Shown here: positions 17,598 through 26,126 of the stretch, piece after piece
Layout of the letters: each line of letters opens with the position of its first letter
Numbering within the stretch: the first letter of the stretch is position 1
Origin: Rhodothermales bacterium
GTDB taxonomy: Bacteria > Bacteroidota > Rhodothermia > Rhodothermales > JABDKH01
Length of the DNA: 33,197 nucleotides
Reading direction: 5' to 3'
Assembly: GCA_013002345.1 (NCBI GenBank)
Contig: JABDKH010000013.1
Span: 1-33,197, forward strand
Program-made: the position numbers and the translations under genes
The notes under the pieces: generated by a model
What the model saw: the letters and a program-made list of their open reading frames with translations, nothing else
What the model was told of the DNA's origin: nothing
Databases searched by the model: none

Positions 17598-19259
17598 ATG
17601 AATCCCAACGCCCCTCTGACTCTAACGTCACGCCGGCTTCCGTTCAGTACACTTCCTGGCTTCAACCGTCTGTTCACCGACTATTGCGAAGAGTTCGATC
17701 GGGTCTCCCGTTACTTCGCGGTCGACTATCGTGACCCAGTACGCTTGCAGGCTCACTGCGACCGCGTTCTCTCGATCGAACGCGACCGGGACCTCCTGGT
17801 GAACGTGCTCCTGGAGCAGAATGAGCAGTGGGGCCTTGACGAAGCCACGCGCCTGAACATCGAAAGCCTTGCAAATCAAGATTCGGTCGCAGTTGTTACC
17901 GGCCAGCAGGTCGGCCTCTTCGGCGGACCACTTTACACGATCTACAAGACAGCCACGGCGGTCAAGCTTGCTGCGGAGTTGTCAACCGCGGGCCGGTCGG
18001 TGGTCCCGGTCTTCTGGCTCGAAGGCGAGGACCACGACCTCGACGAAGTCCGCAGTACCCGTATCATCGGTTCCAGGGGGTTGGTCTCGATCGATTACGA
18101 CTCCGGGCCACCGATGCCGAAGGGGAATTATGGTCCGGTGGGGCGGCTGCCGCTCGGCCCATCCATCGACGACCTGATTGGCGAAGTAGAAAGTGAGCTT
18201 CCGCCAACCGAGTTTCGCGACGAGGTCATGGATCTGCTTCGGGACACGTATGAACCCGGAACGACATTCAGAGACGCATTTGCGAGATTTCTGAAAGCGC
18301 TCTTTCCGTCATCCGGACTTGTCCTTATTTCGCCCGACCACCGCGGTTTCAAGGATGCGGCCGTTCCGCTCTTCGTAAAAGAGGTCAAGGAATCTGCCGA
18401 CGTGGCCGAGCGCGTGTTGCGCGTCAGCGAGGAGTTGGCAAAGGACTATCACGCGCAGGTACGAGTCCGACCCACCAATCTTTTCTACGTGGATGACCGG
18501 GGCCGATCTGCCATTGATGCCGAGTCATCCGGTGATCGGTTTTCAATTCGCGATCACGATGGTACCCTTACGCGAGACGAGTTAATCGCGCTGATCGAAT
18601 CGGATCCGTGCGCCATCAGTCCAAATGTTGTGCTTCGGCCGATTCTTCAGGACCGGCTGCTGCCTACTCTGGCGTATGTCGGCGGACCGGGCGAGGTGGC
18701 CTACTTCGCCCAGTTCAAGCCGGTTTACGACTGGGCCGGTCAGCCCATGCCGGCTGTGTATCCGAGGGCAAGCGTGACCTTCGTGGAAGCTAGGATTCAG
18801 AAGATCCTGGCCCGGTACAACCTGAGTATCCCGGACATAGGATCTGACCTCGAAGGGCTCTTCAAGCAGGTCATCCTGGACAAGCTGGATGTTGACTTGC
18901 CGGCCCGATTTGAAGATGCCGCGCGTCGTATTGATCAGTCCATCGAGGAGATAAGACCGGTCGTTGTAAGCACGGACGCGACTCTCGCCAAAGTCCTTGA
19001 AGCGACACGTGCAAATTTGCACAACGAGTGGAAGAAGCTGCAGGGCAAAGTGCTGAAGGCGGAGAAGCGGCATCACGATGAGGACCGCAGTCGGCTTGAA
19101 CGCCTCCAGGAGAACCTGTATCCGGGCGGAAGCCTCCAGGAGCGCGGCCTGTCCGTCATCCAGTTCCTGAACAAGTATGGGCTGGGGTTCACGGAAGATC
19201 TGATGTCTGCGATGTCTACAGATACTCGTGAGCATCAGGCAATCATGGTGGGTTCCTGA
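17598..19259 (+). CDS. bshC: Bacillithiol biosynthesis cysteine-adding enzyme
   Basis: A 553-residue protein matching BshC, which joins cysteine to the glucosaminyl-malate backbone in the last step of bacillithiol synthesis. Recognised blocks are STLPGFNRLFTDYCEEF at the N-terminus, VVTGQQVGLFGGPLYTIYK around residue 95, VPVFWLEGEDHDLDEV around 135, GLVLISPDHRGFK, and VAYFAQFKPVYDWAGQPMPAVYPRAS, followed by the C-terminal coiled coil (LEKLQ-type heptads around WKKLQGKVLKAEKRHHDE). Length is typical. The HD hydrolase starts 5 bases after its stop. bshB1 is 4 kb downstream; bshA is not in the window. Confidence 0.95.
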   Translation: MNPNAPLTLTSRRLPFSTLPGFNRLFTDYCEEFDRVSRYFAVDYRDPVRLQAHCDRVLSIERDRDLLVNVLLEQNEQWGLDEATRLNIESLANQDSVAVVTGQQVGLFGGPLYTIYKTATAVKLAAELSTAGRSVVPVFWLEGEDHDLDEVRSTRIIGSRGLVSIDYDSGPPMPKGNYGPVGRLPLGPSIDDLIGEVESELPPTEFRDEVMDLLRDTYEPGTTFRDAFARFLKALFPSSGLVLISPDHRGFKDAAVPLFVKEVKESADVAERVLRVSEELAKDYHAQVRVRPTNLFYVDDRGRSAIDAESSGDRFSIRDHDGTLTRDELIALIESDPCAISPNVVLRPILQDRLLPTLAYVGGPGEVAYFAQFKPVYDWAGQPMPAVYPRASVTFVEARIQKILARYNLSIPDIGSDLEGLFKQVILDKLDVDLPARFEDAARRIDQSIEEIRPVVVSTDATLAKVLEATRANLHNEWKKLQGKVLKAEKRHHDEDRSRLERLQENLYPGGSLQERGLSVIQFLNKYGLGFTEDLMSAMSTDTREHQAIMVGS

Positions 19260-23383: not shown

Positions 23384-24148
23384 GTGACAGAAGATTCGAT
23401 CGACGTTCTCGCGATAGCGGCACACCCGGACGACGTGGAATTGTGGGCCGGGGGAACCATCTGTTCGCTCACTGCGCGCGGGTTGGCCGTTGGCATCATT
23501 GACTTGACGCAAGGAGAACTCGGTTCGCGCGGGTCGGTCGAAGAGAGGCGAGAGGAGGCTGCCGCCGCTGCGACGATCATGGGGGTCCGTGTTCGGGAGA
23601 ACTTGAAGATTCCGGACGGCAACATCGAGAACAACCTTCGGAATCGACTCCTTCTCATCCAGCAGATTCGGCGCTATCGACCAACGACGGTTCTGGTCGG
23701 CGCACCGGTTTGCCGACATCCGGATCATGGAGCGGCAACCGAACTTGCGACGGCTTCCGTCTTCTACTCCGGCCTCCGCAAGATTGAAACACTCGCCTCA
23801 GACGGTACACCACAGGAGCCGCATCGACCAGATCACGTCCTCCACTATATGCAGTCGATCCCTTTCGATCCAACGTTTGTCGTTGACGTATCCGACTTCT
23901 GGGATCAGAGAACCCGCGCAGTGCAGGCGTTCAAAAGCCAGTTCTTCAATGCAGACTACGAAGCGAAGTCCAATGAGCCGGAGACGTATGTTTCAAACCC
24001 GGCGTTCTTCGAATGGACGGAGGCGCGTGCCAGATCGTACGGCTACCCCATCGGTGCTCAATTCGCTGAACCGTTCCTGTATCGCAACGGGCCTGTGGGC
24101 CTTGATGACCTGACGTCGGTCCTGGCCCGTAAGCGCACGTTCAAATAG
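23384..24148 (+). CDS. bshB1: Bacillithiol biosynthesis deacetylase BshB1
   Basis: A 254-residue zinc-dependent deacetylase of the LmbE/PIG-L family that removes acetyl from N-acetylglucosaminyl-malate. The metal motif AHPDDVE is at residues 13-19 (His14, Asp16/17), and the third ligand region RHPDHGAA is at about 111-118. TQGELGSRGSVEERREEA and the C-terminal SDFWDQRTRAVQAFKSQFF are specific to BshB1 rather than general LmbE proteins. It uses a GTG start preceded by GGAGAAAG. It follows leuS by 23 bases and converges with the minus-strand KaiC-like gene 11 bases beyond. Confidence 0.94.
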   Translation: MTEDSIDVLAIAAHPDDVELWAGGTICSLTARGLAVGIIDLTQGELGSRGSVEERREEAAAAATIMGVRVRENLKIPDGNIENNLRNRLLLIQQIRRYRPTTVLVGAPVCRHPDHGAATELATASVFYSGLRKIETLASDGTPQEPHRPDHVLHYMQSIPFDPTFVVDVSDFWDQRTRAVQAFKSQFFNADYEAKSNEPETYVSNPAFFEWTEARARSYGYPIGAQFAEPFLYRNGPVGLDDLTSVLARKRTFK

Positions 24149-24159
24149 TCGCAAGGTCG

Positions 24160-25521
24160 TTAGTCTTCTTCGTCGAGGACGTACCGTACGAATTCTTCTG
24201 CCGTCGTGAAGGGCTTCCCGTCGGGAACGACCACGGCCGCGACAACATTCAGGAGATGGTCTGCCTTGTCCGGAGCGGTTTCGCGTAGCCGGTTCTTCAC
24301 CGACGCGAACAGGTTCTGTGCCTCGTCTGATTTGCCGTCTCCGAGGATGACAATGATGCGTTCGACTATCGGGTCTGCGAACAGTGAGTCTTCTCGCTTC
24401 AGCACGTTCTGAAGGGCCTGAATGATTTCTCTGAAGTCGTCCGACCCTGTGCCGTCGTCTGGATCCTCCGTTCGCATGGCGACGAGGGTAAACGAAGAAC
24501 CCGAAGTCTCGTAGTCGTCGAAGTAGAGCTGCAGTTCGTCAGTGAATCTTTCGCGGTTGAGGAAGACAAGCCCGGCGTCTTCAACAGGTGTCGGAGGCGC
24601 GGGTTCGACTGAGAATTCAAATGACGATGGCTCGTCAGGTGTTGCATCGACGGACACGGTCTGGTCAATGACAGGCTCTTGATGTGTCGGGACCCACAGA
24701 TCCGTCTCTTCAGTTGGCTCCTCCGTCGTCGCATCGGATGGCGGCGTCGGTGCAACAGGTGGCACCTCAGCAACTGACGGCAAGGCCGTCGTTCCGCGAA
24801 GGCGCTGCAGTGATTTCGCAACATCGTCGGCTCTCGCAACAACATGTTCCAGCTGCCACCCGACGTCAACACGGCGCGTGACGTGGCCGATCTGAGGAAT
24901 GAGAGAGATCGTTCGTTGCGAGAACCCGTCGACGCAGGCCAGGTGAACGCGCAGGCACCCGGTCATCAGGGTACTCATATAGTCGATGATCCGCCGCGAT
25001 GCATCGTTGGCGGGCTCGGGCATGCCGAACAGAATCGTCGACGGGATATGTTCAAGTTCGGTTATGAGGCGAGCGAATGCGGTGCGGAACCGATCGAAGG
25101 ACGAGAATCGGGCGAAGGCGCTGAAGTCATCGATGACGACTCGATCGGCCGTCGCATCTACGATGAGGCTGGCGAGGACCTTGAGCGACGACTCGAGGGA
25201 GTCGTCGTCGCGGTCGATCAATTCAAGCTCGAACGGTGTGCGGCTGACGCGGAGAAGGCCACTATTAACCGCCTGCGGGAGGTCAAAACCAAGAGACGTG
25301 GCCTGAATGGCCAGATCGGCGCTCCGCAGACGTGAAACGAGAAGCGAAGTCTGTAGCGACCGGGTTGCTGCAGCGATAAACGCTGGGGGCAGAAGGCTGC
25401 GACCGCTGGCGTTTGTTCCGTAGGTCAGGTAGCGGCCTCCCGCAAAGAGTCCACCCCACGACTGATCGACACTGTCAATGCCGAAAAGCGTTCTGGGAGC
25501 AAATGTAGCGGAGTCGTCCAT
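24160..25521 (-). CDS. KaiC-like ATPase with degenerate P-loop fused to a GGDEF-like domain
   Basis: A 453-residue protein that I do not recognise as a named family. Residues 10-200 follow the KaiC/RecA layout (FGIDSVDQSWGGLFAGGRYLTYG, then a Walker A position GTNASGRS at 35-42, where Arg41 replaces the invariant Lys). A Walker B-like VVIDDFSAF lies at 128-136. An acidic, proline-rich linker spans about 248-315. Residues 317-453 resemble a GGDEF fold (FLNRERFTDELQLYF; LQNVLKREDSLFADPIVERIIVIL), but the GGDEF signature is replaced by DPIVE. Loss of both signatures suggests a binding or scaffold role. ATG 25521 is preceded by AAAGG; an upstream in-frame start adds 16 residues. Confidence 0.75.
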   Translation of the reverse strand: MDDSATFAPRTLFGIDSVDQSWGGLFAGGRYLTYGTNASGRSLLPPAFIAAATRSLQTSLLVSRLRSADLAIQATSLGFDLPQAVNSGLLRVSRTPFELELIDRDDDSLESSLKVLASLIVDATADRVVIDDFSAFARFSSFDRFRTAFARLITELEHIPSTILFGMPEPANDASRRIIDYMSTLMTGCLRVHLACVDGFSQRTISLIPQIGHVTRRVDVGWQLEHVVARADDVAKSLQRLRGTTALPSVAEVPPVAPTPPSDATTEEPTEETDLWVPTHQEPVIDQTVSVDATPDEPSSFEFSVEPAPPTPVEDAGLVFLNRERFTDELQLYFDDYETSGSSFTLVAMRTEDPDDGTGSDDFREIIQALQNVLKREDSLFADPIVERIIVILGDGKSDEAQNLFASVKNRLRETAPDKADHLLNVVAAVVVPDGKPFTTAEEFVRYVLDEED

Positions 25522-25733: not shown

Positions 25734-25967
25734 TCAGAGGGCGCTGTTCCTGCGCTCGGCGAGCATGGCTGCGTACGCCATTGAAAGCACTTCTCGTGCT
25801 TCCGGGCTGGTCGCGAGGTGCCGGGCCACCTCGAGTCGCTGATTATCACTGAGAGTGCCTGCCAGGTAGGCCGCAAGAAGCTCCTCATTGATCTGAGCGG
25901 GGTCGCCCGGTGGACCACCGTGTCGTTCGGCGGGGGCGCGTTTGGGTTTCTTGCTTCGGGGAGCCAA
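25734..25967 (-). CDS. Small anti-sigma-like helical protein (zinc-less zf-HC2 type)
   Basis: A 77-residue product from TTG 25967, with GGA about 7 bases upstream; TTG 26036 gives 100 residues. No ATG occurs before the C-terminal helix. A basic start (RSKKPKRAP) leads to NEELLAAYLAGTLSDNQRLEVARHL followed by ATSPEAREVL (quoted in pieces), the pattern of anti-sigma zinc-finger N-domains, but with Ser-Pro-Glu-Ala where the CxxC cysteines would be. Such zinc-less versions are found in several phyla. The frame stops at TGA 25736-25734 and stays open afterwards into the Cys-rich frame. No sigma gene adjoins it; the KaiC-like gene follows on the same strand. Confidence 0.5.
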   Translation of the reverse strand: MAPRSKKPKRAPAERHGGPPGDPAQINEELLAAYLAGTLSDNQRLEVARHLATSPEAREVLSMAYAAMLAERRNSAL

Positions 25968-26126
25968 ATTGATTCCGGACAGTGTCCTGAAAGGTCTCGG
26001 CCGATATCGTCGGTAGACACCTATATTAACGGTCAAAATCGGTCGAATAGTGCCGGAAAGTCGTCAATTCTTTGACGGCAGCGGTCAGTGACGGCCGACT
26101 TTCCATCGAATTGATCGCTCACCTTC

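What the first reader, a model, noticed from the sequence alone, without database searches (positions are those of the whole stretch)
24160..25521. Pseudo-KaiC joined to a pseudo-GGDEF domain
The sequence shows a KaiC-like N-domain whose Walker A lysine is Arg41 (GTNASGRS) while a Walker B-like VVIDD is kept. A disordered acidic/proline linker follows, and then a GGDEF-like C-domain in which the signature is DPIVE. KaiC-type ATPases and GGDEF cyclases are both signalling modules (known). A fusion in which both have lost their catalytic marks suggests a sensor or scaffold, possibly binding ATP or c-di-GMP without turnover (inference). I know of no named family with this composition.
Basis: partly seen in the sequence, partly recalled or inferred. 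Interest (0 to 1): 0.6.

Follow-up and report, generated by a model that had tools for sequence, protein, structure and literature searches.

The report
Dead-enzyme exopolysaccharide secretion regulator, BcsE-like
This gene encodes a protein built from two enzyme domains that can no longer work as enzymes, kept like this across two bacterial groups and usually found beside genes that make and export a surface sugar polymer, so it is probably a scaffold for that machinery, surprisingly in bacteria that mostly lack the signal molecule its best-known counterpart senses.

Summary
Residues 9-245 are a KaiC/RecA domain (Pfam E 6e-12). Residues 321-453 are a GGDEF fold without its signature (model pLDDT 90.5; Foldseek top hits nearly all GGDEF). 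This copy has not merely decayed: Arg at the Walker A lysine is kept in 54/61 relatives in Rhodothermales and Ignavibacteria, and a second Arg (R66), aligned with KaiC's catalytic Glu, in 53/61.

The composition is not unheard of: E. coli BcsE is NTPase*-REC*-GGDEF*. Weak collinear similarity to BcsE beat 60/60 shuffles, but Pfam's BcsE cut-off is not reached.

In both groups the gene usually leads an exopolysaccharide operon: TPR/beta-barrel exporter, GT2 synthase, single-TM protein, deacetylase-like proteins, and in Ignavibacteria a GH9 cellulase. Two genomes lacking the rest keep only this gene and the single-TM gene, like BcsE-BcsF.

c-di-GMP sensing is an unlikely shared function: 21/32 relatives carrying the gene have no Pfam GGDEF match, and 37/37 Ignavibacteria have only a signature-less one. 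The window genome has one GGDEF-EAL protein.

Best reading: a BcsE-like pseudoenzyme scaffold, probably c-di-GMP-independent. The window's family has lost the operon, so this copy's own role is open.

The parts
24160..25521 (-). 453-aa gene: KaiC-like pseudo-ATPase, disordered linker and pseudo-GGDEF domain
24787..25497 (-). KaiC/RecA-fold N-domain (residues 9-245)
   Evidence: Pfam KaiC 6.3e-12; Foldseek KaiC 2.6e-14 and FlaH 2.8e-14
25396..25419 (-). Degenerate Walker A GTNASGRS (35-42); Arg41 in place of Lys, Arg in 54/61 relatives
25324..25326 (-). Arg66, aligned with the second residue of KaiC's FEES glutamate pair; Arg in 53/61 relatives
25126..25143 (-). Walker B-like RVVIDD (127-132); D131 is Asn in 24 of 42 Rhodothermales members
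24562..24786 (-). Acidic/proline-rich linker (residues 246-320), mostly disordered
   Evidence: pLDDT 39-49 over most of it
24163..24561 (-). Pseudo-GGDEF C-domain (residues 321-453)
24388..24399 (-). I-site position, KRED (375-378): Asp kept (45/52 with data), Arg in 26/52 relatives but Lys here
24358..24372 (-). PIVER (384-388) at the place of the GGDEF signature
   Evidence: placement by spacing from D378
25734..26036 (-). Small ORF upstream on the same strand, conserved in Rhodothermales; function unknown, possible neighbour gene
   Evidence: tblastn

Best explanation
The protein belongs to a two-pseudoenzyme family that works like BcsE. SHOWN by sequence: a KaiC-fold domain lacking the Walker A lysine and the aligned catalytic glutamate, a disordered linker, and a GGDEF-fold domain without its signature. 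SHOWN by gene order: in many members it precedes a TPR/beta-barrel exporter, a membrane GT2 synthase, a single-TM protein and deacetylase-like proteins. INFERRED: the pseudo-ATPase domain oligomerises or docks rather than hydrolysing ATP; it is held at the inner membrane by the single-TM protein's cytosolic tail, as BcsF holds BcsE; and the pseudo-GGDEF domain contacts the synthase or a regulator, switching on or stabilising polymer secretion, mostly without c-di-GMP. In the window's family the rest of the operon is gone, so this copy is an intact orphan with another, unknown partner.
For: Folds. Conserved loss of catalytic residues; tree. The operon recurs in Rhodothermales and Ignavibacteria. 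In the 60-genome set the operon GT2 (E < 1e-150), the deacetylase-like gene and the barrel segment (E < 1e-30) occur in the same 12 genomes. G011 and G026 lack those three yet keep a single-TM protein directly downstream of this gene. Both domains align collinearly with a BcsE profile, scores 35.9 and 28.2 against shuffle maxima of 24.3 and 19.5. BcsE: NTPase*-REC*-GGDEF*, recruited by single-TM BcsF to the cellulose synthase (PMC7439463, PMC11470070). c-di-GMP machinery mostly absent: 21/32 carriers without a Pfam GGDEF match; 37/37 Ignavibacteria with one signature-less match.
Against: The BcsE similarity is weak: hhalign probability 9-17%, and the only Pfam BcsE hit (7e-4, one member, N-domain) is below cut-off. 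The KaiC and GGDEF controls were single sequences, less sensitive than a profile. No REC* domain, BcsQ or BcsR was identified. About 20 of 32 carriers, the window's family among them, lack the operon, so its function cannot always be tied to it. Neither the polymer nor any interaction is known.
Confidence: 0.5

Rival explanations
1. A c-di-GMP receptor: the pseudo-GGDEF domain binds c-di-GMP at its I-site, as PelD and BcsE do, and relays it to the synthase.
For: The I-site Asp is kept in 45 of 52 and RxxD-type Arg in 26 of 52 with data; PelD_GGDEF matches 7/36 members weakly; the window genome has one GGDEF-EAL protein with intact motifs.
Against: The window protein has Lys at the I-site Arg. 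17 of 26 carriers of high completeness have no Pfam GGDEF match, and 11 of the 12 with the operon have none. EAL, searched in 20 genomes, is absent from 7 of the 12 carriers among them. All 37 Ignavibacteria have only a signature-less match.
Confidence: 0.2
2. A nucleotide-regulated switch: Arg41 and Arg66 still hold ATP or ADP without hydrolysis, and occupancy sets the oligomer state and so the polymer output.
For: Glycines of the P-loop are kept (G35 59/61, G40 61/61) and Ignavibacteria keep Thr after Arg and mostly an Asp-Glu Walker B; Foldseek also finds ATP-bound FlaH.
Against: Rhodothermales mostly have Gly after the Arg and Asn in Walker B. No ligand was modelled.
Confidence: 0.2
3. The window copy is a relic of the lost operon without a function, on its way to decay.
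For: No relative of the operon's barrel segment, single-TM or deacetylase-like genes, and no close GT2, in the window genome.
Against: The frame is intact with conserved motifs, and all six genomes of the window's family still carry matches, none with an internal stop. The P-loop Arg is not local decay.
Confidence: 0.1

Closest known systems
BcsE (E. coli type II cellulose secretion; Pfam PF10995)
   Same: Degenerate RecA/KaiC-like NTPase joined to a signature-less GGDEF; membership of an exopolysaccharide secretion locus; a single-TM partner gene (BcsF)
   Different: No REC* domain identified; disordered linker instead; below Pfam's cut-off; found mostly without canonical diguanylate cyclases; operon GT2 has no PilZ match
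PelD (Pseudomonas Pel system)
   Same: Degenerate GGDEF linked to a synthase-dependent polysaccharide system; PelD structures among the Foldseek hits
   Different: No KaiC-like domain in PelD (own knowledge); the window's I-site Arg is Lys
KaiC / ArlH (FlaH) ATPases
   Same: Same fold and clear sequence homology of the N-domain
   Different: Only one KaiC domain here, where KaiC has two; Walker A lysine and aligned catalytic glutamate replaced by Arg

Membership tests
BcsE (PF10995) | Reaches Pfam's curated score for BcsE | tested here: not met
   No match for P0001; best member 18.8 bits against 25
BcsE (PF10995) | Degenerate RecA/KaiC-like N-domain | tested here: met
BcsE (PF10995) | REC* domain between NTPase* and GGDEF* | tested here: not met
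   Residues 246-320 are predicted mostly disordered
BcsE (PF10995) | Degenerate GGDEF domain | tested here: met
BcsE (PF10995) | I-site RxxD motif | tested here: not met
   Window has KRED; RxxD-type Arg in 26/52 relatives. Binding of c-di-GMP itself is not testable here
BcsE (PF10995) | Encoded with a polysaccharide synthase and a single-TM partner | tested here: inconclusive
   Met in many relatives; not met in the window genome
Active KaiC-type ATPase | Walker A lysine and catalytic glutamates | tested here: not met
   Arg41 and Arg66
Active diguanylate cyclase | GG(D/E)EF signature | tested here: not met
   PIVER at that place

The most novel reading that the evidence does not exclude
A new kind of synthase-dependent exopolysaccharide secretion system of Rhodothermales and Ignavibacteria in which a BcsE-like double pseudoenzyme controls polymer output without c-di-GMP, its dead cyclase domain having become a purely structural contact.
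Probability: 0.3. Interest if true: 0.65.

Novelty: new variant of a known kind. Interest (0 to 1): 0.5.

Why it matters
It offers a second, widespread case of the NTPase*-GGDEF* design beside a polysaccharide secretion operon, in bacteria that mostly have no canonical diguanylate cyclase. That makes testable whether dead GGDEF domains in such systems act as structural parts once c-di-GMP is gone. It also gives unnamed EPS operons of these groups a marker gene.

Tried and rejected
Decay of this copy alone: rejected, Arg is the common state. Plus-strand gene: several stops in the frame read. A first C-domain alignment failed on coordinates. hhalign against single E. coli BcsE: insignificant; a six-sequence profile gave weak collinear signals, above 60/60 column shuffles. 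Full-length PDB fold search was dominated by KaiC in the rows shown, so BcsE could not be judged there. Promoter and terminator scans gave nothing above shuffles. Searches of the held library for a description of this family or operon, with a few term sets, found none; most subscription papers are not held.

Full report
OBSERVATION. The ORF at 24160-25521 is real and lies on the minus strand: 453 aa from ATG 25521. The N-domain matches Pfam KaiC at 6.3e-12 and PDB KaiC at 1.6e-13. Walker A is GTNASGRS with Arg41 for Lys, and VVIDD is present. In a full-length AlphaFold2 model (pLDDT 83.2) the two domains are confident and most of the linker is not. The C-domain modelled alone reaches 90.5, and its Foldseek PDB hits are almost entirely GGDEF domains, PelD among them. 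Single C-domains match GGDEF_2 (19/36), GGDEF (10/36) and PelD_GGDEF (7/36) at E up to 1, best 6.9e-5.

FAMILY AND CONSERVATION. Of 60 relatives 32 carry a match. A genome-contig scan gave 44 loci in Rhodothermales and Ignavibacteria. Weaker matches in other families have the length of two-domain KaiC, which is inference from length except for one that I read. In 61 non-identical proteins the Walker A lysine position is Arg in 54, Lys in 4, Asn in 2, His in 1; position 66, aligned with KaiC's FEES glutamates, is Arg in 53; Walker B D131 is Asn in 24 of 42 Rhodothermales members. On a tree of the N-domain the four Lys rows need at least three changes and sit inside Arg-bearing groups. The dead state is therefore the family's rule.

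NEIGHBOURHOOD. Among 45 loci (44 plus the window) the gene is often followed by a TPR protein of about 850-1290 aa with a C-terminal part I read as an outer-membrane barrel from its sequence, a GT2 membrane protein (Pfam 3.8e-34; PDB hits include hyaluronan and cellulose synthases), a single-TM protein of about 140 aa, and one or two deacetylase-like proteins; Ignavibacteria often add a GH9 cellulase (Pfam 8.7e-80). The barrel call is not confirmed by a fold search; PDB hits covered only the TPRs. In the 60 relatives the GT2 at E < 1e-150, the deacetylase-like protein and the barrel segment (E < 1e-30) occur in the same 12 genomes. The window genome and the other five of its family lack them, apart from one weak barrel match in G002 (1.7e-10). 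G011 and G026 also lack them but keep a single-TM protein directly after the family gene. The window gene itself is flanked by bshB1 and, beyond the small ORF, by an aldehyde dehydrogenase-like gene that also flanks many operon-bearing copies, which suggests loss of the operon from a shared site.

KNOWN COUNTERPART. BcsE of E. coli has an N-domain of RecA/KaiC-like fold with a divergent Walker A, then REC* and GGDEF* that binds c-di-GMP by RxxD (PMC7439463). The single-TM BcsF recruits the NTPase* domain by beta-strand addition (PMC11470070). hhalign of the family against a six-sequence BcsE profile gives E 0.0015 for the N-domain and 0.0037 for the C-domain, collinear but with probabilities of 17% and 9%. 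Both scores beat 60 column shuffles; a single true KaiC scored 25.9 in another region and a single canonical GGDEF 15.1. Those two controls are weaker queries than a profile. Pfam's BcsE cut-off is not reached. I therefore say 'works like', not 'is', BcsE.

C-DI-GMP. PF00990 was searched in all 60 relatives: 21 of the 32 carriers have none, among them 17 of the 26 that are at least 90% complete with at most 5% contamination; 11 of the 12 with the operon have none. EAL was searched in 20 genomes, 12 of them carriers, and is absent from 7 of those 12. Each of 37 Ignavibacteria has one PF00990 match; no GG[DE]EF was found in the fetched reading frame of any of them. Non-canonical cyclases and assembly gaps remain possible. 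The window genome has one protein with intact GGDEF and EAL motifs.

VERDICT. A conserved double pseudoenzyme, probably a membrane-docked scaffold or regulator of exopolysaccharide secretion in much of its family; the role of the operon-less window copy is open. Oligomerisation, docking, partner contacts and the polymer are inference.

Noticed in passing
window 25734-26036, minus strand: Small ORF upstream of the gene, recognisable at a like place in several Rhodothermales loci (motif LAxYLAGxL...EARELL); looks anti-sigma-like by eye.
   Followed up: partly
L099-L135: Each of 37 Ignavibacteria has one PF00990-matching protein without GG[DE]EF; in the three read in full (about 620 aa) the site reads GRLDER or GRLSER and a phosphopentomutase-like gene follows.
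   Followed up: partly
L058, L061, L064: Some Ignavibacteria carry a tandem pair of the family: a copy of about 280 aa without the C-domain, next to a full-length copy.
   Followed up: no
G000:C59 (L091:7086-9242): The only PF00990/PF00563 matches of the window genome lie in one 718-aa GGDEF-EAL protein.
   Followed up: partly
window 23384-24148 and 17598-19259: Genes that look like bacillithiol genes bshB1 and bshC, by eye from the translations.
   Followed up: no
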